63,535 nucleotides of DNA, taken from NCBI GenBank assembly GCA_025358295.1, contig JANYJY010000044.1, forward strand, positions 1 through 63,535, written 5' to 3'. Positions within the stretch are counted from its first letter, which is position 1. Each line of letters opens with the position of its first letter. Positions 7,190 to 45,070 of the stretch are shown here, piece by piece. A program made the translations under genes and the position numbers. The notes under the pieces are model-generated. The model made no database searches. It saw only the letters and a program-made list of their open reading frames with translations, and was not told the origin of the DNA. The stretch comes from Gammaproteobacteria bacterium (lineage in GTDB: Bacteria > Pseudomonadota > Gammaproteobacteria > Steroidobacterales > Steroidobacteraceae).

Positions 7190-7986
7190 ATTCCAACGAG
7201 GCCGAAGAAGCGGCCGGCGTTGCGGGTGGTCGCCGCCGCGACGCTCTGCAGCGATTCACCGCGCAAATTCGCCACGCTCTGCGCGATATGAGGCAGATAA
7301 CAAGGTTCATTACGCCGCGTTTTGGGATGCGGCGCCAGATCGCGGGGCAGCAGATAGGGAGCGTCGGTCTCGACCATCAACCGATCGGCGGGAATGTGCG
7401 CGACGGCCTCGCGCAAGGACTGGCCGCGGCGCTCATCGTTCACCCAGCCGGTCACCCCGATGTGCAAATCGAGCATCAGATACTCCTCAAGTTCGGACCG
7501 CCCACCGGTGAAGCAATGCGCGACGCCGCCGACCAGGCGGCTGCGGAATTCCTTCAGTATGGCCACGAAGTCGCCATGCGCATCGCGCTGGTGCAGGAAC
7601 ACGGGTTTGCGCACTTCGGCGGCGATTTCCAATTGTGCGGCAAAGGCCGTGCGCTGCGCATCGGGAGGCGAGAAATTGCGGTGGTAGTCCAGGCCGCATT
7701 CCCCGACGGCAACAACCTGCGGCCGGCGCAGCAGTCCATACAGCTCTTCGCGCAGCGCGGCATCGAAGCTGCTTGCATGGTGAGGATGCACGCCTGCGGT
7801 GCTCGACAAGACAGCAGGGTTTGATTCAGCCAGTGCTGCCGCCTGCCGGGAGCCGGCGAGATCGGCGCCTGTGACGATCTGACGCCGCACGCCGGCCTCG
7901 ATCGCCCGCGCAATCACCGTGTCACGATCGTCTGCGAAGCTGTCGTGGGTAAGATTCGACCCTATATCAATTAATGTTATCTTCAT
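7186..7986 (-). CDS. tatD: TatD family 3'-5' DNase / metal-dependent hydrolase
   Basis: The product (266 residues) aligns by eye along its whole length with E. coli TatD rather than with YcfH or YjjV. Its N-terminus reads DIGSNLTHDSF, where other TatD relatives carry an HxH motif. Other metal-site segments are STAGVHPHH, VGECGLDYHRNF, FLHQRDAH, AHCFTGG and VETDAPYLLPRD. E. coli TatD is reported as a Mg-dependent 3'-5' exonuclease linked to DNA repair. The gene is convergent with the NERD gene and shares its terminal bases, leaving no room for a separate terminator. There is no Tat export operon nearby. Confidence 0.93.
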   Translation of the reverse strand: MKITLIDIGSNLTHDSFADDRDTVIARAIEAGVRRQIVTGADLAGSRQAAALAESNPAVLSSTAGVHPHHASSFDAALREELYGLLRRPQVVAVGECGLDYHRNFSPPDAQRTAFAAQLEIAAEVRKPVFLHQRDAHGDFVAILKEFRSRLVGGVAHCFTGGRSELEEYLMLDLHIGVTGWVNDERRGQSLREAVAHIPADRLMVETDAPYLLPRDLAPHPKTRRNEPCYLPHIAQSVANLRGESLQSVAAATTRNAGRFFGLVGI

Positions 7987-8038
7987 GCGTCATTGTAATC
8001 GCGGGCGCCCGTGTAAATTGTGGCGCGGAGGTTGGTGA

Positions 8039-8785
8039 ATGTTGGTCGCCAAGAAACTCATGGTAGCGGCGCTGCTCTTATTCGCGGCTGCCTCGCAGGC
8101 CCAGGAAGGAGGCGATCTGCAAGCACAGATCCTCTACGCATTTCAAAGCGAGGATACCAACACTCTGGCTAATTTGATCCAGGATTTGAGCTCGCAGGTC
8201 AATGGGGACGAGGGTGCGGCGTCACTGCGTTATCACCTGGCCCATGCTCAGTATCGGCGCGGCCTGCTTGCCGCCGCCGCCGGGTCGCGCGGTTCAGAGT
8301 CCGCGTTTTCTGACTGCATTGATGAACTAAAACCGCTCGTGTCGCAAGATGTTAAATCGGTTGAAGCGATGGTCCTGCAGTCGGCTTGCTACGCCGGCCT
8401 GGCGGCCCAAAGAAAACTCGAGTCGGTGCTGCTGCGGGCTCGCTCCGACGAGCGGCTCAAGGTCGCGCTGGCGCTGGTGCCACGCAATCCGCGCGCGGTG
8501 TACTTTTCGAGCCTCGAGGGCCTGCGTCAGGCCAAGCCAGGTTCCGCGGAGCGCCAGCATGCTTTCGCACAATTGCAGCTTGCGGTGCAAATATTCGACG
8601 CGACGTCGGCGACTAGCATCGACACGCCGGGTTGGGGTCATGCCGAGGCGTATCTGGCTCTTGGGCGCGAACTTCAGGCACGCGGCGACCAACTGGGCGC
8701 GCGCAATTGGATCGAGAAAGCCTTGATCGCCGCGCCGGACTACAAGGCGGCGCAGCGGCAGCTGGCGTTATTGGTGCGCCACTGA
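8039..8785 (+). CDS. Secreted helical-repeat (TPR-like) protein, function unknown
   Basis: The 248-residue protein starts with a clear Sec signal peptide (about residues 1-21, ending SQAQE), so it should be periplasmic or exported. The mature part is almost all alpha-helical, and the last third (ALGRELQARGDQLGARNWIEKAL and following) reads as tetratricopeptide-like repeats. I do not recognise a named family. The ATG has a good ribosome site, GGAGG at about 8028-8032. It is followed 48 bases later by the YgjP-type metallopeptidase gene on the same strand. A role in protein-protein contact in the envelope is a guess from the repeat fold only. Confidence 0.7.
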   Translation: MLVAKKLMVAALLLFAAASQAQEGGDLQAQILYAFQSEDTNTLANLIQDLSSQVNGDEGAASLRYHLAHAQYRRGLLAAAAGSRGSESAFSDCIDELKPLVSQDVKSVEAMVLQSACYAGLAAQRKLESVLLRARSDERLKVALALVPRNPRAVYFSSLEGLRQAKPGSAERQHAFAQLQLAVQIFDATSATSIDTPGWGHAEAYLALGRELQARGDQLGARNWIEKALIAAPDYKAAQRQLALLVRH

Positions 8786-8833
8786 GCGCGACTGCTGCGG
8801 ATAGCCCGGCCTAACCTGGTATGATTCGGCTCG

Positions 8834-9562
8834 ATGAAGCCACAAGGCACGCAGTTGTCGCTGTTCGAGACCCGTAGCTCCAGCGATCCATTCGCCGTTC
8901 GAGTCAGCCCGCGCGCGCGGCGTTTGACGGCGCGCGTGCATGTCGGTGGCCGCGTAGAAATCGTCGTGCCCATGGGCGTTCACGCCCACATTGTCAGAGA
9001 TTTCGTCAAGCGATTCACGCCGTGGATCGATCGCAAGGTCGCGGCCATGCAATCTTTCGTGGCGCCAAGCGAGCCGGTCCCGGGAAGCATCGAGTTTGCG
9101 CTTACCGAGGAGCGGTTCGCGGTGGAATGGCGCAGGGAGTCGAAGCGCGGCCTCGATCAGGGCACGGACAGAATCGTGGTGCGGGCCTCGGACGAAGGGG
9201 GTGCGCGCGCATTGCTGCAGGCCTGGCTGAAGAAAGCTGCCTACGAACGCCTGGCGCCCCGCTTGCTGCAGTTGGCGCAGGAATTGAATTGCTCGGTGGA
9301 CCGAGTCGCCATCCGCTGCCAGCGCACGCGCTGGGGAAGCTGCTCGACGCGCGGCACGGTGAGCTTGAATTGCTCGCTGCTTTTCCTGCCGCTGGAAGTC
9401 GTGCGCTATTTATTCGTGCACGAGCTGGCGCATACCAAACACATGAATCATTCGCCGAAATTTTGGGGCTTGGTGGAGAAGATCGAACCGGATTACCGGC
9501 GATTGGACCGCGCCCTGCTGGCCGGCTGGCGCACGGTTCCCGGCTGGGTCTTCAAGACTTAG
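8834..9562 (+). CDS. YgjP/DUF45-type M48-like metallopeptidase
   Basis: This 242-residue protein carries the zinc motif HELAH at about residues 196-200, within FVHELAHTKHMNHSPKFW, and the upstream conserved segment RWGSCSTRGTVSLN. Both are diagnostic of the YgjP-like (DUF45/WLM) group of metal-dependent hydrolases. No signal peptide is present, so it is probably cytoplasmic. Only two bases separate its stop from the start of tryptophan 2,3-dioxygenase, so the two are likely co-transcribed. The in vivo substrate is not evident from sequence. Confidence 0.9.
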   Translation: MKPQGTQLSLFETRSSSDPFAVRVSPRARRLTARVHVGGRVEIVVPMGVHAHIVRDFVKRFTPWIDRKVAAMQSFVAPSEPVPGSIEFALTEERFAVEWRRESKRGLDQGTDRIVVRASDEGGARALLQAWLKKAAYERLAPRLLQLAQELNCSVDRVAIRCQRTRWGSCSTRGTVSLNCSLLFLPLEVVRYLFVHELAHTKHMNHSPKFWGLVEKIEPDYRRLDRALLAGWRTVPGWVFKT

Positions 9563-39435: not shown

Positions 39436-40533
39436 ATGTCGGAAGATGGATCGAAGCTGATCAACGTTCGCGCCGCGAACACGAACGATGCGGTTGACTT
39501 GCGCCGCATTGGCGCGCACCCGGATCATTGGTACCCCGTCGCGTGGTCCGAGGAATTGAAAATACGCAAGGCGCTTGGCCGCCGCTTCGCTGAATTGCCC
39601 ATTGTGCTGTATCGGGGTGAGAGCGGACAGGTGTTTGCACTCGAAGACCGCTGCGCCCACAGGCAGGTACCCTTGCATCTCGGCGTTGTCAGCGGCGATG
39701 AGATCAAGTGCCATTATCACGGTTGGTCCTACAATCGCACCGGTAAGTGCGTGAACGTGCCTTACCTTGGGACGGACCGGCTTCCCACCGGCGTCAAAAG
39801 CTATCCCGCGCGCGAAGTGGACGGGCTGATCTTTATTTTCCCCGGTGATGCGGCCTTGTCTGACAGCCGCCTGCCATCGGGATTGGGCTCCTCGCAGCGC
39901 AAGGACTACAAGACTCGGCGGCTGAATCGCGAAGTGGCCTGCCACTACACGTTCATGCACGAGAATTTGTTCGATATGAATCATCAGTTCATGCATCGCA
40001 AGCAGATGGGTTCCATCAGGGCGAGGTGCCTTGGGCGGCAGCATGGCGAGAATTGGGCTCAGGTTGAATACAGCTTCAGCCGCACCGAGGGAAAATCCTC
40101 CGTGGGCGAGCAGGTCATCGTGGACCTGATGCGCAAGCGCGGCGAGGCAAAGAAGGATTTCTCGGATCACATGAGAATACGCACCGACTACCCGAGCCAA
40201 AGCCTCAAGGTCTGGGTGGGCCGTGATATCCAACAATCGGATGATCCGGTGCTGGATGTGTGGCTGGGCTATACGCCGCTGGACGCCGCACAACGCACCA
40301 ATCGTACCTATGGCTACCTGTCGGTGAAGAAGCCGAAAATGCCGGGGCTCATTCACGCGGTGTGGCCCTTCGTGACCTGGTTTACCGAGAATATTTTTCG
40401 CGAAGACAAGGAAATAGTGGAACACGAGCAGAGCGCCTATGACGCTCAAGGCGCGGATTGGAACAACGAGGTGTTTCCGCCCATACGCGATCTTCGCAGC
40501 GTACTAGCCCGCTGCGGGAAGCCCATCAATTAA
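39436..40533 (+). CDS. Rieske [2Fe-2S] non-heme iron oxygenase
   Basis: The 365-residue protein has an N-terminal Rieske domain with CxH (DRCAHRQVPLHLG) and CxxH (IKCHYHGWSYN) cluster ligands at about residues 72-97. Its catalytic domain has the mononuclear iron site in ENLFDMNHQFMHRKQ (two His) with an acidic ligand expected later, perhaps in FREDKEIVEHEQ. Such enzymes hydroxylate, demethylate or desaturate small molecules using electrons from a separate reductase, which is not encoded nearby. It resembles VanA-type or choline-type monooxygenases more than ring dioxygenases. A TGGAG site precedes the ATG. It heads a six-gene run with lipid-type enzymes, so its substrate may be a head group or lipid intermediate. 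Confidence 0.88.
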   Translation: MSEDGSKLINVRAANTNDAVDLRRIGAHPDHWYPVAWSEELKIRKALGRRFAELPIVLYRGESGQVFALEDRCAHRQVPLHLGVVSGDEIKCHYHGWSYNRTGKCVNVPYLGTDRLPTGVKSYPAREVDGLIFIFPGDAALSDSRLPSGLGSSQRKDYKTRRLNREVACHYTFMHENLFDMNHQFMHRKQMGSIRARCLGRQHGENWAQVEYSFSRTEGKSSVGEQVIVDLMRKRGEAKKDFSDHMRIRTDYPSQSLKVWVGRDIQQSDDPVLDVWLGYTPLDAAQRTNRTYGYLSVKKPKMPGLIHAVWPFVTWFTENIFREDKEIVEHEQSAYDAQGADWNNEVFPPIRDLRSVLARCGKPIN

Positions 40534-40542
40534 ATCCGATTC

Positions 40543-41205
40543 ATGGCAACCTCCAAATCAACATCGAAGTCCGGATCCGTGGCCGAGCGCCCGTGGGATG
40601 CGCGCCTCGCACGCCGCCTGGTGGCGCCACTCACGGACAGCTGGGTCACACCCAATCATCTGACCACGGTTCGTTTGGCCGTGGGGATGGCCGCGGCGGC
40701 GGCATTCATTCCCGGCACCTACGGCTGGTCGAACCTGGCGGCGCTGCTGCTGATCCTGTCGAATTTTCTGGATCATACGGACGGCGAATTGGCGCGCATG
40801 AGCGGCAAGACCAGCCGCCTAGGGCATGTGTACGACCTCGCCAGCGACGCCGTCGTGACAATTTTGCTGTTTGTCGCCATCGGCATCGGCGTCGGCGCGA
40901 CTGCCCGGGCACCACTGCAAATCGCACCGGCGGTGCTGGGTTTGATTGCCGGCTGCGCGATCGCGCTCATCTTCTTTTTGCGCATGCGCATCGAGGACAT
41001 GGCCGGTAAGACAGCGAGCCGGCAGGCCTCGGTGGGCGGATTCGAGACCGAAGATGTGTTGTATCTATTGCCGCTGGTGACGCTCAGTAATTCCGTCATG
41101 CCGTTTCTGGTTGCAGCGGCATTGTGCGCGCCGCTGTTTGCGATCTGGGTGATCATCGATTACCGCCGTGTCCTGTGGCGCCAGGCAACGCAGGTCGCGG
41201 TCTGA
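40543..41205 (+). CDS. CDP-alcohol phosphotransferase family membrane protein
   Basis: The 220-residue protein has five or six membrane helices and an intact CDP-alcohol phosphotransferase motif, D-x2-DG-x2-AR-x8-G-x3-D-x3-D, read as DHTDGELARMSGKTSRLG then HVYDLASD (about residues 79-104). Such enzymes displace CMP from a CDP-linked alcohol and join the phospho-alcohol to a second hydroxyl group. It lacks the N-terminal pattern of PgsA and PssA and is unlike the pgsA product nearby. The nucleotidyltransferase gene at 42984 could supply its CDP-activated substrate. It sits nine bases after the Rieske gene and directly abuts the next gene. Confidence 0.88.
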   Translation: MATSKSTSKSGSVAERPWDARLARRLVAPLTDSWVTPNHLTTVRLAVGMAAAAAFIPGTYGWSNLAALLLILSNFLDHTDGELARMSGKTSRLGHVYDLASDAVVTILLFVAIGIGVGATARAPLQIAPAVLGLIAGCAIALIFFLRMRIEDMAGKTASRQASVGGFETEDVLYLLPLVTLSNSVMPFLVAAALCAPLFAIWVIIDYRRVLWRQATQVAV

Positions 41206-41979
41206 ATGGCCGCGATTCATTCAGGGAGCGATCCGCTCCCGCGTGAAATTGCGTCCAACGCCGATCGTGCAACTGCGGCGCGTCTGCGGCAATTCGACAT
41301 GCGCGCATTGCGCCGCGAATACGTCGAGCAGGGCGCCTTCGTGTATCAGCCGGATTTCTTGGCGCCCGAGATCACGGCTCAATTGGTAGCCGATGTCGCG
41401 GCCGTCACGCCGTCGGTGAACCGCAATTATCTTCCGGGTCATAAGCAAGGCGGGAGTGTCAGCCGCCACACCATCGATCGGTTGGCGCCTGCCATCGGGG
41501 AGTTGTATCGCTCGCCGGCATTGATCGCCTGGTTGGGGGAGTTGGCGGGCGAGCGCCTGCAGTTCTCTCCGAGCGATGATCCACACGCCTATGCGCTCTA
41601 TTTCTATACCCGGCCCGGGGACCACATCGGCTGGCACTACGACACCTCTTACTATGTCGGGCGCCGCTACACCGTGTTACTGGGCGTCATCGATGAGTCG
41701 TCATGCCGGCTCGATTATGAACTGCATACGCGTGAGACAGGCGCCACCGCGAAGCCCGGATCGGTGCAGATTCCGCCGGGCGGGTTGGTGTTTTTCGACG
41801 GCGACAAATTGCGCCATCGCATTTCGCCGCTGGCCGAGAATGAAATGCGCGTGTCGCTGACTTTTGAATATGTGACTGATCCTTCCATGCGTCCGTGGCG
41901 GCGGTTCATGTCCAATATGAAGGACGCGGTCGCGTATTTTGGTTTTCGTCAGGTATTTCGCCGACGCGGACGCGCATGA
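41206..41979 (+). CDS. Fe(II)/2-oxoglutarate-dependent oxygenase related to the BesD/HalD group
   Basis: The 257-residue protein has a jelly-roll oxygenase pattern. Iron ligands are H144 and D146 in GWHYDTSYY and H204 in KLRHRISPL; R215 in MRVSLTF should bind 2-oxoglutarate. The overall sequence (YFYTRPGDHIGWHYDTSYY, VLLGVIDESSC) recalls the BesD/HalD amino-acid halogenases, but those have Gly in place of the Asp ligand so that chloride can bind. With Asp present a hydroxylase is predicted. Its ATG follows the previous stop directly, and its stop overlaps the next ATG (ATGA). The substrate is unknown; a CDP-alcohol or its lipid product is a reasonable guess from context. Confidence 0.82.
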   Translation: MAAIHSGSDPLPREIASNADRATAARLRQFDMRALRREYVEQGAFVYQPDFLAPEITAQLVADVAAVTPSVNRNYLPGHKQGGSVSRHTIDRLAPAIGELYRSPALIAWLGELAGERLQFSPSDDPHAYALYFYTRPGDHIGWHYDTSYYVGRRYTVLLGVIDESSCRLDYELHTRETGATAKPGSVQIPPGGLVFFDGDKLRHRISPLAENEMRVSLTFEYVTDPSMRPWRRFMSNMKDAVAYFGFRQVFRRRGRA

Positions 41980-42950
41980 CTCGAGCGGCGACCTGGGCTC
42001 TGTCGGCGGGCGTACTCCTGTTCATCGGCGTGCTCGCCTCCCAGGGTTTGCCGGCCATCGTGGCCACACTGGCGCTGGCGGGCTGGGGATTACTGCTGGT
42101 CGCCCTTTTCCACTTGATTCCTCTGGTGCTCGACGCGATTGCGATACGCGTGTTGTTCAATGAGGGCGAAGGCACCTTGAAGGACGCGTTGTTGGCGCGT
42201 TGGGCGGGGGAGTCGGCCAATAGCCTGATGCCCGCAGGGCAGATCGGCGGGCCTGTCCTGATGGCCCGCCATCTGGCGCAACGCGGCTTGCCGATGCAGG
42301 ACGCTGCCGCCGCCATTACCGTGAGCACGACGTTGCAGACCTTTGCGCAAATCGCCTTCGCGCTGCTCGGGGTGATCTTGCTCGGTGCGCAGGCGACGCA
42401 AATTTCGCAGCACTCGGTGCGCATGTCGGCATTGATTGCCAGCGGGCTGCTGGCCCTGCAGGTGGGCGGTTTCTATTGGCTGCAGCGACGCGGATTCTTC
42501 AGCAAGCTGATGCGCGCCGCCACGCGATTTTCCGGCAAGCGTGACTGGTCGCAATGGATGAGCCAGGCCGAGGCAATCGATATGGCCGTGCAGCGCGCCT
42601 ATGCTCGGGGCGGACCGGTCGCCGCCAGCTTTCTGCTCAGCTCGGTGGGCTGGCTGGTGGGGACGGGCGAGGTGTACCTGATACTGCAGATGATTCATCA
42701 CCCCGCCGGTTGGATGGACTCACTATTGCTCGAGAGCCTGGGTCAGGCCATTCGTGGCGCAGCTTTCGCAATTCCCGGCGCGCTTGGCGTCCAGGAGGGC
42801 GGCTATTTATTACTCGCGCCCATGGTCGGCTTGCCTCCGGACGCGGCATTGGCCCTGTCCCTGGCCAAGCGTACCCGTGAGCTCCTGCTGGGCTTGCCCG
42901 GACTGTTGTACCTGTACCTTTCTTCGCGCGCCGCCGCCGCCGCCGTGTAA
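41976..42950 (+). CDS. HpnL/MprF-type (lysylphosphatidylglycerol synthase TM region) membrane protein
   Basis: The 324-residue protein has about eight membrane helices and the family landmarks AGESANSLMPAGQIGG and the C-terminal segments ESLGQAIRGAAFAIPGALG and VQEGGYLLLAP. These match the flippase-like domain of MprF and, more closely, the HpnL proteins seen near hopanoid genes. No aminoacyl-transferase domain is present, so it more likely moves or accommodates a lipid than modifies it. Homology starts at the ATG that overlaps the oxygenase stop. The C-terminus ends in a run of alanines encoded by GCC repeats. No squalene or hopanoid gene occurs in the window. Confidence 0.83.
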   Translation: MTRAATWALSAGVLLFIGVLASQGLPAIVATLALAGWGLLLVALFHLIPLVLDAIAIRVLFNEGEGTLKDALLARWAGESANSLMPAGQIGGPVLMARHLAQRGLPMQDAAAAITVSTTLQTFAQIAFALLGVILLGAQATQISQHSVRMSALIASGLLALQVGGFYWLQRRGFFSKLMRAATRFSGKRDWSQWMSQAEAIDMAVQRAYARGGPVAASFLLSSVGWLVGTGEVYLILQMIHHPAGWMDSLLLESLGQAIRGAAFAIPGALGVQEGGYLLLAPMVGLPPDAALALSLAKRTRELLLGLPGLLYLYLSSRAAAAAV

Positions 42951-42983
42951 AATTCCGGAACCCTTGGTATTGAAAGGAAATTA

Positions 42984-43751
42984 ATGCGCGCCATTATTCT
43001 GGCAGCCGGCCGCGGACTGCGCTTGCAGCAAGCCGACGATAGGCAGATGCCCAAGTGTTTGCTGCAGTTCGGCGGCATGAGCCTGCTCGAGCGGCATTTG
43101 CGCATGCTCAAAAACGCCGGCATCGACGAGGTGGTATTGGCGCTCGGCTATCGTCATGAACGAGTCGAGGCCGAACTCGACCGGTTGAACTGGCAGCCGC
43201 GTCCGGAGATCGTTCTTAATCCGCAGTTCGAGCTGGGCAGCGTTCTGACCGTCCACACGGTCGCGGATGCCATGACCCGCGGTGGCGACGTGCTGTTGAT
43301 GGATGCAGACGTGTTGTACGACGAACGCATCACTTCGGCTCTGGTGGCAGGGGCGGGGCCGGTCAACCGTGTGCTGATCGACCGTGATTTCGAAGCCGGC
43401 GAAGAGCCCGTCAAGCTCTGCATCAGCGGTGGCGTACCCATCGAACTGCGCAAGAAGCTCGAGCCGGAATTGCGTTACGACACCATCGGCGAGTCGGTGG
43501 GCTTTTTCCGTTTCGATCAGGCCGCCGCGCGCCGCCTGGCCGAACTGGTGGCGCAGTACGTCGCGAGCGATCGTGCAAACCTGCCGCACGAAGAGGCCGT
43601 GCGCGATCTGCTGCGCGAGCGCAGTCAAATCTTCGACGTGGCCGACGTGACCGGTGCACCGTGGATTGAAATTGATTTCCCCATCGATGTCGTGCGCGCC
43701 GCGCACGAAGTCCTGCCGCAACTTGAGCCGCTGTCGGCACCCAAACAATGA
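42984..43751 (+). CDS. LicC/PntC-like nucleotidyltransferase
   Basis: The 255-residue protein begins with the NTP-transferase loop MRAIILAAGRGLRL and PKCLL (residues 23-27). The metal-site aspartates fit D107 and D109 in LLMDADVLYD and D231 or D235 in WIEIDFPID. This combination recalls CTP:phosphocholine (LicC) and CTP:2-aminoethylphosphonate (PntC) cytidylyltransferases and inositol-phosphate cytidylyltransferases, rather than sugar-nucleotide enzymes. It probably activates a small phospho- or phosphono-alcohol with CTP for the CDP-alcohol phosphotransferase at 40543. An AAAGGA site precedes the ATG. The actual substrate and nucleotide are inferred. Confidence 0.83.
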   Translation: MRAIILAAGRGLRLQQADDRQMPKCLLQFGGMSLLERHLRMLKNAGIDEVVLALGYRHERVEAELDRLNWQPRPEIVLNPQFELGSVLTVHTVADAMTRGGDVLLMDADVLYDERITSALVAGAGPVNRVLIDRDFEAGEEPVKLCISGGVPIELRKKLEPELRYDTIGESVGFFRFDQAAARRLAELVAQYVASDRANLPHEEAVRDLLRERSQIFDVADVTGAPWIEIDFPIDVVRAAHEVLPQLEPLSAPKQ

Positions 43752-45070
43752 ATGCAGCACCGTCGCGCAGCGTGGGCCGCTCGGCGCGTTCGTGGCTGCT
43801 TGTTGCACTGCTGGCATCCGGCGCCCGGGCGGCCGCGTACGACGACGGCCCGGCCCAGGCGCCCGCACCCGGACCCATCGCGCCGCCGCCTTCGTCGGAA
43901 CCCACGGGATTGGCCAGATGGTTCAATCCCTCGACCGCGCCTTTCATTCCGGTGCCTGAAATTGCCGTCGATCCGGACAGCGGCACGACGCTGGGGGTCA
44001 TTCCGACTTGGATACAGGCCGATGAGAATCATCAGATCCGCCGCATCATCGCCCCCGATATCATTTACAACCCCAATTTCGGTATCGGCGCGCACGGCCG
44101 CGTATACGGCTATACGTCGGGCGACGAGCAATGGTCGGTCGAGGCGGGCATCAAGCAGCGCGTCGAGCGCGAGCTCGATGCCGAATATGAATTCGGTCGG
44201 CAGCGCCAGGGACGCTGGTCTTTCAATACCACACTGATCTACGACATCAACGGTACGCCGCGTTTCTACGGATACCGCAATAATTCGCGCAAAAGCAACG
44301 AGACGAACTACACCAACCATCAAGAACGCGCGCAAATGCAGGTGGGTCTGAATTTAAATCACGCTTGGCAGCTGCTCTATACGGCGCGCTATCAAGTGGT
44401 GGACGTAAGGCCCGGAACCCTGGACAAGATCCCTTCGATCGAAACTCGCTTCGGCAATGCGCGACTCGGGACAAACAAGCTGTTGCTGAACCGCCTGTCC
44501 CTGGTCTACGACACGCGCGATGATTTAACCGTGCCGAGCCGCGGAATGGAGTTGATCGCCTATGGCGGAGCGGCGAGCCGCCACGGTTTGCTGAATGAAT
44601 CCCTTTATAGTGAGGCCGGGGCAGACGGGCGCATATTTTGGCCGGTCGCAGCGGACACCGTCCTCGTGGGTCATATGGCGATACACTATTTGCCGAGTAC
44701 TCACCACGTGCCGTTTTGGGCGCTCAGCAATATCGGCGGCGGAGATAGCGTGGTTGGCGGAGAACAGACTTTACGGGGCTTCGGCGCCGGTCGTTTCTAT
44801 GATCGGAACTCGTTCTCCAGCAGCGTCGAAATGCGCCGCAAGATCCTGACCTTCGACGCTACCTCGAGTCTGGTCGATGTGGAATTCACGCCCTTCATAG
44901 ACGTCGGCCGGGTGTTCGCGCACTCGGGTGCTTTCCCCTTTAAGCAGCTGCACTACGTCGGCGGCGTGGGATTTCGCGGCATTGCCCGGCCCTTCGTGGT
45001 CGGATACGTAGACATCGGCTACGGCAGCGAAGGCGTTGCGGCATTCACGGGACTCAACTATCCCTTTTGA
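43748..45070 (+). CDS. Omp85/BamA-type outer-membrane beta-barrel (surface-antigen domain, no POTRA)
   Basis: The 440-residue protein has a signal peptide (about residues 1-29), a Pro/Ala-rich linker and then alternating strands to a C-terminal YPF, typical of an outer-membrane barrel. LRGFGAGRFYDRN at about residues 342-354 matches the conserved L6 loop motif of the Omp85 superfamily, and RLSLVYDTRDDLTVPSRGMEL matches the surface-antigen domain. POTRA domains are absent, as in the PatA-like and lipid-linked single-barrel members. The ATG overlaps the nucleotidyltransferase stop, so it belongs to the same operon and may export or place that pathway's product. Confidence 0.87.
   Translation: MNAAPSRSVGRSARSWLLVALLASGARAAAYDDGPAQAPAPGPIAPPPSSEPTGLARWFNPSTAPFIPVPEIAVDPDSGTTLGVIPTWIQADENHQIRRIIAPDIIYNPNFGIGAHGRVYGYTSGDEQWSVEAGIKQRVERELDAEYEFGRQRQGRWSFNTTLIYDINGTPRFYGYRNNSRKSNETNYTNHQERAQMQVGLNLNHAWQLLYTARYQVVDVRPGTLDKIPSIETRFGNARLGTNKLLLNRLSLVYDTRDDLTVPSRGMELIAYGGAASRHGLLNESLYSEAGADGRIFWPVAADTVLVGHMAIHYLPSTHHVPFWALSNIGGGDSVVGGEQTLRGFGAGRFYDRNSFSSSVEMRRKILTFDATSSLVDVEFTPFIDVGRVFAHSGAFPFKQLHYVGGVGFRGIARPFVVGYVDIGYGSEGVAAFTGLNYPF

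What the first reader, a model, noticed from the sequence alone, without database searches (positions are those of the whole stretch)
39436..45070. Six-gene run that looks like an uncharacterised phospho-alcohol head-group (lipid or surface) pathway
Six plus-strand genes are packed with gaps or overlaps of -4 to 33 bases: Rieske oxygenase, CDP-alcohol phosphotransferase with an intact motif, Fe(II)/2-oxoglutarate oxygenase, HpnL/MprF-like flippase domain, LicC/PntC-like nucleotidyltransferase and Omp85-type barrel. Seen in sequence: the motifs and the spacing. Known: cytidylyltransferase plus CDP-alcohol phosphotransferase pairs make phosphocholine-, aminoethylphosphonate- or inositol-phosphate-linked products. 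Inferred: a CDP-activated small alcohol is joined to a lipid or polymer, oxidised twice by iron enzymes, flipped and placed in the outer membrane. I know of no described pathway with this exact set. No PEP mutase or choline kinase is present, so the activated substrate may be new or come from elsewhere.
Basis: partly seen in the sequence, partly recalled or inferred. Interest (0 to 1): 0.78.

Follow-up and report, generated by a model that had tools for sequence, protein, structure and literature searches.

The report
Likely phosphonate head-group genes for hopanoids
Six side-by-side bacterial genes look like a kit for putting a small phosphorus-containing head group on a membrane lipid; the core of the kit was already predicted to make phosphonate lipids, but its gene company points to hopanoids, the bacterial cousins of cholesterol, as the lipid.

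Summary
The six genes exist as described (39436-45070 +; gaps 9, 0, -4, 33, -4). Four of them (CDP-alcohol phosphotransferase, 2-oxoglutarate oxygenase, HpnL, cytidylyltransferase) keep that order in 78 of 80 named loci, mostly Burkholderiaceae; the other two are cut by a contig end. Many relatives add PEP mutase, phosphonopyruvate decarboxylase and AEP aminotransferase, and some lie inside hopanoid clusters. In 369 genomes of the class the cytidylyltransferase occurs in 22: 21 have squalene-hopene cyclase and 20 PEP mutase. The six PEP-mutase genomes without it also lack the cyclase. Its model matches AEP cytidylyltransferase PntC best in the PDB. In a relative the six genes lie between squalene synthase and dxs of the hopanoid locus; here that junction is empty and the genes sit elsewhere. 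This genome has no PEP mutase but has an AEP-degrading operon, so it may scavenge AEP. Most likely: a cassette making phosphono-hopanoids. Acceptor and product are inferred from gene company, not shown. A 2018 paper already drew the core set as a phosphonolipid cluster, so this is a new variant of a known predicted kind.

The parts
39436..40533 (+). VanA-type Rieske non-haem iron oxygenase; an accessory found in few relatives. Best NCBIfam model is 4beta-methylsterol monooxygenase SdmA, well below its cut-off.
   Evidence: Pfam PF00355 and PF19112; NF052579 147.5 bits of cut-off 600; PDB best DdmC 3gb4; 84% and 82% identical copies in L061 and L062, 54% in L129 and 51% in L046
40543..41205 (+). 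CDP-alcohol phosphotransferase: inferred to move the activated phosphonate (or phospho-amine) from its CMP ester to a lipid alcohol
   Evidence: PF01066 53 bits; full motif invariant in 24 of 24; subfamily in 20 of 369 class genomes, all 20 with squalene-hopene cyclase; fused to the oxygenase in 3 of 81 loci with both
41206..41979 (+). Fe(II)/2-oxoglutarate oxygenase of the BesD/HalD fold with a hydroxylase-type HxD triad; inferred head-group hydroxylase
   Evidence: PF23169 42 bits; AF2 model pLDDT 85, best PDB fold HalD 7u6h, also hydroxylase 7jsd; triad invariant in 23 of 23
41976..42950 (+). HpnL, hopanoid-associated flippase-like membrane protein, cassette type
   Evidence: TIGR03476 310.8 bits over cut-off 195.65; groups with cassette HpnLs and not with the second HpnL of this genome (no support values read)
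42984..43751 (+). PntC/LicC-like cytidylyltransferase, inferred to make CMP-2-aminoethylphosphonate or a close analogue
   Evidence: Profile A1 best PDB hit PntC 6pd1 85.6 bits, LicC 64.3, IPCT 57.1; AF2 model pLDDT 93.6, PntC-AEPT ranks 1-7 in Foldseek; D107 and E203 in 98 of 98 rows
43748..45070 (+). Omp85-superfamily outer-membrane barrel, no POTRA domain matched; role unknown
   Evidence: PF01103 49 bits over the barrel; NF047779 120 of cut-off 200; found after AEPT in L059, L060, L101 and after the cytidylyltransferase in L061, not found in the stretches of the other 76 loci

Best explanation
The six genes are the head-group cassette of a hopanoid-linked phosphonolipid pathway, now standing apart from the hopanoid locus. 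Proposed working: (1) the PntC-like enzyme activates 2-aminoethylphosphonate (AEP) or a close amine-bearing analogue with CTP; (2) the CDP-alcohol phosphotransferase passes it to an alcohol of a hopanoid polyol, giving a zwitterionic, phosphatidylethanolamine-like hopanoid; (3) the 2-oxoglutarate oxygenase hydroxylates the head group, and in this lineage a Rieske oxygenase adds a second oxidation of unknown position; (4) HpnL flips the product, and the Omp85 barrel belongs to outer-membrane placement. This species has no PEP mutase and is inferred to scavenge AEP. Shown: gene content, order, intact motifs, folds, co-occurrence and the different position in a relative. Inferred: substrate, acceptor, order of steps, product, direction of transport, role of the barrel.
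For: Cytidylyltransferase nearest to PntC by profile and by fold. Core order in 78 of 80 loci. PEP mutase over cut-off in 45 of 48 cassette genomes given (48 of 80 loci) and squalene-hopene cyclase over cut-off in 47 of the same 48. In 369 class genomes: cytidylyltransferase 22, of which cyclase 21 and PEP mutase 20; phosphotransferase 20, all 20 with cyclase; PEP-mutase genomes without the cytidylyltransferase 6, none with cyclase. The 22 lie in 12 families. Hopanoid genes lie within the fetched stretch in 11 of 21 class loci and PEP mutase in 19 of 21. L059, L060 and L101 run hopanoid genes, cassette, PEP mutase, Ppd, AEPT, Omp85 in one direction. In L061 the cassette and Rieske gene lie between squalene synthase and dxs; the same junction here is about 120 bp without them. 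Own AEP-degrading operon with PhnW 494.7 bits.
Against: No chemistry: nothing shows that a hopanoid carries a phosphonate. This genome has no PEP mutase, so AEP supply is inferred; L061's genome has none over cut-off either. The published reading of the core cluster lists diacylglycerol and alkyl-acylglycerol among its terms. Only 7 of the 80 named loci show a hopanoid gene within the stretch; in P. xenovorans the cassette, PEP mutase and cyclase lie far apart on one replicon (positions). G361 has the cytidylyltransferase beside a LicD protein with no cyclase and no PEP mutase, so the enzyme alone is not specific to hopanoids. Genomes are related, so the Fisher p-values overstate the evidence. 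In PEP-mutase clusters a second cytidylyltransferase-like domain is fused to PEP mutase, so which one feeds the transferase is open. A Rieske reductase partner was not looked for.
Confidence: 0.47

Rival explanations
1. A phosphonolipid pathway with diacylglycerol or alkyl-acylglycerol as acceptor, as the 2018 paper implies; hopanoids only accompany it because both lipids are used together in the same membrane, and HpnL/HpnN serve transport.
For: Published assignment of the same core set, with DAG, AAG and HAEP in its abbreviation list. CDP-alcohol phosphotransferases commonly use diradylglycerol acceptors (recalled). In P. xenovorans the cassette is far from the cyclase, and 73 of 80 named loci show no hopanoid gene in the stretch.
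Against: Diacylglycerol is expected in all these bacteria (recalled), so it does not explain cyclase in 20 of 20 phosphotransferase genomes against 32 of 349 others, nor the phosphotransferase standing next to HpnA among the genes mapped in L031, L032, L039, L041, L050, L059, L060 and L101.
Confidence: 0.22
2. In this PEP-mutase-free lineage the cassette has changed substrate, for example to phosphoethanolamine or another phospho-alcohol, and the Rieske enzyme belongs to the new product. The product is a phospho-hopanoid, not a phosphonate.
For: No PEP mutase here or over cut-off in G371, and a short one without Ppd beside it in L062; these three loci share the Rieske gene at 82-84% identity. 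The AEP operon here is of the degrading type.
Against: 18 of 18 positions checked in the cytidylyltransferase are identical in 98 rows, the window's included; this is weak, because I chose most of them from invariant columns of A1. The window's enzyme is 74-80% identical to those of the PEP-mutase loci L059 and L060. AEP aminotransferase is present here and in G371. Rieske relatives also occur near PEP-mutase clusters, in L046 and L129.
Confidence: 0.2
3. A Lic-like pathway that decorates a surface glycan, with the transferase acting on an undecaprenyl-linked or LPS acceptor.
For: Relation to LicC; LicD beside the homologue in G361.
Against: The adjoining transferase is an integral-membrane CDP-alcohol phosphotransferase, not LicD, in 78 of 80 loci; cyclase association. 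LicD was not searched for in the flanks of the 80 loci.
Confidence: 0.07
4. Unrelated neighbours that happen to be packed together.
For: The Rieske and Omp85 genes are variable: Rieske in 3 of 80 and Omp85 in 4 of 80 loci.
Against: Core order in 78 of 80 loci across genera; phosphotransferase-oxygenase fusion in Pandoraea; near-complete co-occurrence.
Confidence: 0.02

Closest known systems
Predicted phosphonolipid gene cluster of lichen Nostoc with its Burkholderia homologue (PMC5987646 Fig. 7, adapted there from Yu et al. 2013, which I could not read)
   Same: CDP-alcohol phosphatidyltransferase, OG-Fe(II) oxygenase, hpnL and NTP transferase in one set
   Different: Here no pepM in the genome, no ppd or AEPT in the locus; extra Rieske and Omp85 genes; the paper's main text has no 'hopan' or 'squalene'
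Pnt pathway: PntC CTP:AEP cytidylyltransferase (Rice et al. 2019, PMC6697681)
   Same: Best profile and fold match; same chemical logic of CMP activation
   Different: Stand-alone, 21-22% identical to PntC over the fold match; Asp at the position of PntC Glu104, as in LicC (my mapping); the adjoining transferase is an integral-membrane phosphotransferase, not LicD
hpn hopanoid biosynthesis clusters (HpnA, G, H, L, M, N, SHC)
   Same: HpnL here; cassette embedded in hpn clusters of some relatives
   Different: The HpnI-type glycosyltransferase, HpnJ, HpnK and HpnL set of this genome is a separate locus with its own HpnL
IPCT/DIPPS di-myo-inositol-phosphate synthesis
   Same: Same pair of activities; NF041135 is the first NCBIfam hit of the cytidylyltransferase and the second of the phosphotransferase
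   Different: Far below cut-off (63.4 and 36.1 of 580); PntC scores higher; inositol genes were not searched for
BesD/HalD amino-acid halogenases and their hydroxylase homologue 7jsd
   Same: Fold of the oxygenase
   Different: HxD in place of the halogenase HxG (the rule is recalled; HalD and BesD show HWG in the alignment)

Membership tests
PntC (AEP cytidylyltransferase) | Sequence and fold nearest to PntC among solved structures | tested here: met
PntC (AEP cytidylyltransferase) | Preference for AEP over phosphocholine | not testable with these tools
   Needs kinetics; acidic residues at the two amine-facing positions are present (D107, E203; positions mapped by me from the alignment and section 8 of PMC6697681)
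PntC (AEP cytidylyltransferase) | PEP mutase in the genome | tested here: not met
   Absent here, present over cut-off in 20 of 22 class genomes with the enzyme
CDP-alcohol phosphotransferases | D-x2-D-G-x2-A-R-x8-G-x3-D-x3-D motif (recalled) | tested here: met
   Invariant in 24 of 24
PgsA / PssA | Score above curated cut-off | tested here: not met
   27.8 of 109.1 and 20 of 107 bits
HpnL | TIGR03476 over cut-off | tested here: met
   310.8 of 195.65 bits
BesD/HalD halogenases | Iron-site Asp replaced by Gly | tested here: not met
   HYD invariant in 23 of 23
SdmA sterol C-4 demethylase | NF052579 over cut-off | tested here: not met
   147.5 of 600 bits
Predicted phosphonolipid cluster | CDP-APT + OG-Fe(II) + hpnL + NTPT together | tested here: met
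   Window genes and 78 of 80 loci; matched by family name, no sequence of the published clusters was compared
Predicted phosphonolipid cluster | pepM, ppd and AEPT available | tested here: not met
   pepM absent; ppd not searched genome-wide; AEPT homologue PhnW present in a degrading operon
Hopanoid pathway part | Genome makes hopanoids (SHC, HpnH, HpnG) | tested here: met
   SHC 842.4 bits, HpnH 537.5, HpnA 478.3 over cut-offs; HpnG 172.7, under its 187.1
Hopanoid pathway part | Product is a hopanoid | not testable with these tools
   No lipid data

The most novel reading that the evidence does not exclude
There is an unreported class of membrane lipid, the phosphono-hopanoids: hopanoid polyols carrying aminoethylphosphonate or its hydroxylated form, flipped by cassette-type HpnL. 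It would be the main fate of PEP-mutase phosphonate in the hopanoid-making members of this class (20 of the 26 PEP-mutase genomes in the sample have the cytidylyltransferase and the cyclase), and the window's lineage keeps it alive on scavenged AEP while adding a Rieske oxidation.
Probability: 0.4. Interest if true: 0.85.

Novelty: new variant of a known kind. Interest (0 to 1): 0.62.

Why it matters
If true, it joins two fields that none of the listings I saw joins: hopanoid lipids (used as molecular fossils) and surface phosphonates. It would give HpnL, whose function is described as not established (PMC12583986, passages), a concrete cargo, name a transferase for a phosphonyl-tailoring pathway, and predict a new lipid in culturable soil bacteria. 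It also offers an easy test, since phosphonate 31P signals are well separated from phosphate esters (recalled).

Tried and rejected
Considered and dropped. An inositol-phosphate (DIPP) pathway: both proteins hit NF041135 but far below cut-off, and PntC scores higher. A halogenase role for the oxygenase: triad is HxD. PgsA/PssA paralogy: scores far below cut-offs. PEP mutase hidden elsewhere in this genome: three PF13714 proteins, all without the motif. MFS and gamma-glutamyltranspeptidase genes downstream of the cassette in Paraburkholderia (seen in L090) as replacement substrate genes: they look unrelated, and PEP mutase is elsewhere in those genomes. First translation of L051-L053 used the wrong strand and was repeated.

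Rows dropped before counts. Alignment A1 holds 19 of 22 class cytidylyltransferases, the window's included (L006 and L026 with in-frame stops and L025, a partial copy, left out). A2 has 23 sequences (P0003 plus 22 of 82 found), A3 24 (P0002 plus 23 of 84), A4 and A5 P0001 or P0006 plus 4 of 4. The 98-row residue count is P0005 plus 97 of 100; three with stops left out; its 18 positions were chosen by me, mostly from invariant columns of A1. PEP mutase and cyclase were tested in the genomes of 48 of the 80 named loci, chosen by me. Gene maps of loci rest on tblastn at E <= 1e-8, not on annotation, and many stretches end at contig ends.

Not done: no test of Ppd, HpnN, an AEP transporter or a Rieske reductase in the own genome; no tree of the cytidylyltransferase or phosphotransferase; no check of Nostoc genomes; no lipid chemistry. 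PMC12871164 (Burkholderia flavophos preprint) was searched for 'hopan', 'lipid' and 'PntC' with no occurrence.
Full report
Observation. The six plus-strand genes are at 39436-45070 with gaps 9, 0, -4, 33 and -4. Upstream are an ORF that looks like uvrC (recognised by eye, not searched), a CDP-alcohol phosphotransferase of the PgsA position and two tRNA genes; downstream is a minus-strand metallo-beta-lactamase-fold gene. Domain searches confirm Rieske/VanA_C, CDP-OH_P_transf, HalD (with a sub-threshold 2OG-FeII oxygenase match), HpnL (TIGR03476, 310.8 bits over a cut-off of 195.65), NTP_transf_3 and an Omp85 barrel. The window is contig C13 of a 4.02-Mb draft genome, 97.5% complete in 74 contigs. 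The class is not named by the tools; its named relatives are Gammaproteobacteria.

The hopanoid lead. HpnL pointed to hopanoids. The genome has squalene-hopene cyclase (842.4 bits), HpnA, HpnH, HpnG (172.7 bits, under its cut-off of 187.1), squalene synthase and dxs on contig C3. It also has an HpnI-type glycosyltransferase, HpnJ and HpnK with a second HpnL on C20. In a small tree the cassette HpnL groups with cassette HpnLs of other species and not with its own second copy.

Relatives. A search of 369 class genomes with the cytidylyltransferase found 22 at E <= 1e-30. I took stretches around the 21 other than the window's. PEP mutase lies in 19 of 21 stretches and at least one hopanoid gene (SHC, HpnA, G, H, M, N, an HpnI-position glycosyltransferase or squalene synthase) in 11 of 21; several stretches are short contig ends. 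In L033 the neighbours were identified as PEP mutase fused to an NTP transferase (TIGR02320, 381.6 bits over 319.55, EDKLFPKSNS visible), phosphonopyruvate decarboxylase (431.7 over 312.5) and a class-V aminotransferase, with MMPL (HpnN-like), PhyH, HpnG-like, cyclase, squalene synthase and dxs; other neighbours in L040. A copy of the aminotransferase in L062 is over the PhnW-AepZ cut-off.

A scan of named genomes with alignment A1 kept 80 loci, mostly Paraburkholderia, Caballeronia, Cupriavidus and Pandoraea plus five metagenome genomes labelled Gammaproteobacteria or Proteobacteria. The order phosphotransferase, oxygenase, HpnL, cytidylyltransferase is kept in 78 of 80; the other two, L108 and L128, begin at a contig end just upstream of the cytidylyltransferase. 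PEP mutase is in the same stretch in 31 of 80, a hopanoid gene in 7, Rieske in 3 and Omp85 in 4. PEP mutase is over cut-off somewhere in 45 of the 48 genomes tested and the cyclase in 47 of 48. In the seven Paraburkholderia genomes fetched, PEP mutase, decarboxylase and aminotransferase form a separate locus (L145-L151); in one Caballeronia stretch (L152) PEP mutase and decarboxylase adjoin the cassette.

Co-occurrence. In the same 369 genomes the cyclase is over cut-off in 52, the phosphotransferase subfamily is in 20 at E <= 1e-15 and PEP mutase is over cut-off in 26. The 14 control genomes gave no cyclase over cut-off and no PEP mutase at the threshold used. Cytidylyltransferase and cyclase: 21 of 22 against 31 of 347 others. 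Phosphotransferase and cyclase: 20 of 20 against 32 of 349. Of the 26 PEP-mutase genomes, 20 have the cytidylyltransferase and all 20 have the cyclase; the other 6 have neither. One-sided Fisher p-values are 3e-14 or smaller but the genomes are related; the 22 fall in 12 families. The exceptions: G361 has the cytidylyltransferase beside a LicD protein, with no cyclase and no PEP mutase; G008 has the phosphotransferase and cyclase but no cytidylyltransferase or PEP mutase hit and is 75% complete; the window's own genome has no PEP mutase. Two cytidylyltransferase genomes besides G361 (G164, G332) gave no phosphotransferase hit.

A cassette in another place. In L061, a metagenome genome whose cassette proteins are 72-85% identical to the window's (Omp85 lower, 65 and 78% in two pieces), the minus-strand genes HpnH, HpnA, HpnG, SHC and squalene synthase are followed on the plus strand by phosphotransferase, oxygenase, HpnL, cytidylyltransferase, Omp85, Rieske and then dxs. 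In the window's genome squalene synthase and dxs on C3 are transcribed away from each other across about 120 bp with nothing between (123 bp by the ORF ends; one search printed 126, counting the start codon), and the six genes are on C13, with Rieske first. The direction of the move is not decided. L059, L060 and L101 show one co-directional run from hopanoid genes through the cassette to PEP mutase, decarboxylase, aminotransferase and Omp85.

Enzymes. The cytidylyltransferase profile hits PntC (6pd1) at 85.6 bits, LicC at 64.3 and inositol-phosphate cytidylyltransferase at 57.1. Its model (pLDDT 93.6) has PntC chains as the first seven Foldseek hits, TM 0.81-0.82 on the query; inositol-phosphate enzymes follow, then LicC. 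PntC residues Glu104 and Glu196, which face the amine of AEP (PMC6697681 section 8), map in the alignment to D107 and E203 here, both unchanged in 98 of 98 rows; LicC has Asp at both. So an amine-bearing substrate is likely and AEP is the best guess. The phosphotransferase has the full motif. The oxygenase has the BesD/HalD fold, whose solved members are shown with lysine, ornithine or glycine (titles), but with HxD, as expected of a hydroxylase. In Pandoraea (L111, L119, L120; 3 of 81 loci with both) phosphotransferase and oxygenase are one reading frame, so they probably act on the same molecule. The Rieske protein's nearest curated model is the sterol C-4 demethylase SdmA and HpnA's second is SdmB; this is a hint that the Rieske enzyme could act on the triterpene part, no more.

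Substrate supply. The three PEP-mutase-superfamily proteins here lack the EDKxxxxxNS motif. The genome has an AEP-degrading operon: regulator PhnR, phosphonoacetate hydrolase PhnA, phosphonoacetaldehyde dehydrogenase, a Na/Pi symporter and PhnW, all over at least one curated cut-off. That makes external AEP a plausible source; an AEP transporter was not searched for. The alternative is a switched substrate.

Literature. Rice et al. 2019 (abstract, passages, sections 6-8 read) describes PntC and notes clusters with a fused and a separate nucleotidyltransferase; 'hopan' is not in it. PMC5987646 (passages and abbreviation list read; figure not held) draws CDP-APT, OG-Fe(II), NTPT, pepM, ppd, AEPT and hpnL as a phosphonolipid cluster in lichen Nostoc with a Burkholderia homologue, and lists DAG, AAG and HAEP; 'hopan' and 'squalene' are not in its main text. 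PMC12583986 (passages) calls the function of hpnA, hpnB and hpnL not established. Only one paper of the library holds both 'hopan' and 'phosphonolipid', a Hedgehog review (listing only). Of 38 papers with 'hopanoid' and 'phosphonate' I saw 20 titles, none on such a lipid. The listed titles of searches (20 of 176; 20 of 59; 20 of 48; 12 of 12; 11 of 12) showed no phosphono-hopanoid either; PMC5987646 came from 61, 96 and 101. Most subscription papers are not in the library.

Verdict. A real, conserved head-group cassette of four genes with two variable neighbours. The core is already in print as a predicted phosphonolipid cluster; what is added here is genomic evidence that it belongs to hopanoid makers, the case for a hopanoid acceptor, a PEP-mutase-free variant with Rieske and Omp85 genes, and its standing apart from the hopanoid locus. 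The chemistry is unproven.

Noticed in passing
G000 contig C64, L157:9398-15637: AEP-degrading operon (phnR, phnA, phosphonoacetaldehyde dehydrogenase, Na/Pi symporter, phnW) in the window's genome, which has no PEP mutase.
   Followed up: partly
L058:8872-13351: HpnI-type glycosyltransferase, HpnJ, HpnK and a second, divergent HpnL in the same genome.
   Followed up: partly
L111, L119, L120, about 7450-8960: Pandoraea: CDP-alcohol phosphotransferase and 2OG oxygenase fused in one reading frame.
   Followed up: yes
G091, G120, G235, G342: These genomes hold two phosphotransferases of this subfamily, in G120 and G342 within a few kilobases of each other, beside two NTP transferase domains. Possibly two transfers or two acceptors.
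   Followed up: no
L045:13124-14889 (G361): Cytidylyltransferase homologue beside a LicD protein in a genome without cyclase or PEP mutase hits: a possible glycan-tailoring use of the same enzyme.
   Followed up: partly
L062:10767-12610: Short PEP-mutase reading frame under the family cut-off, followed by AEP aminotransferase with no decarboxylase found beside it, in a Rieske-bearing relative: phosphonate synthesis may be decaying in this lineage.
   Followed up: partly
L033:14809-15567 and L040:15506-16264: A PhyH-type 2OG oxygenase in the hopanoid-phosphonate cluster, in loci where the HalD-like oxygenase was not found.
   Followed up: no
window:39436-40533 and L028:3142-4122: Rieske protein and HpnA have sterol demethylase proteins SdmA and SdmB among their nearest NCBIfam models, hinting at a shared origin of hopanoid and sterol tailoring.
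   Followed up: no
L128 (Candidatus Paraburkholderia schumanniana): Small 2.4-Mb genome keeps part of the cassette and a partial PEP mutase but gives no cyclase hit.
   Followed up: no
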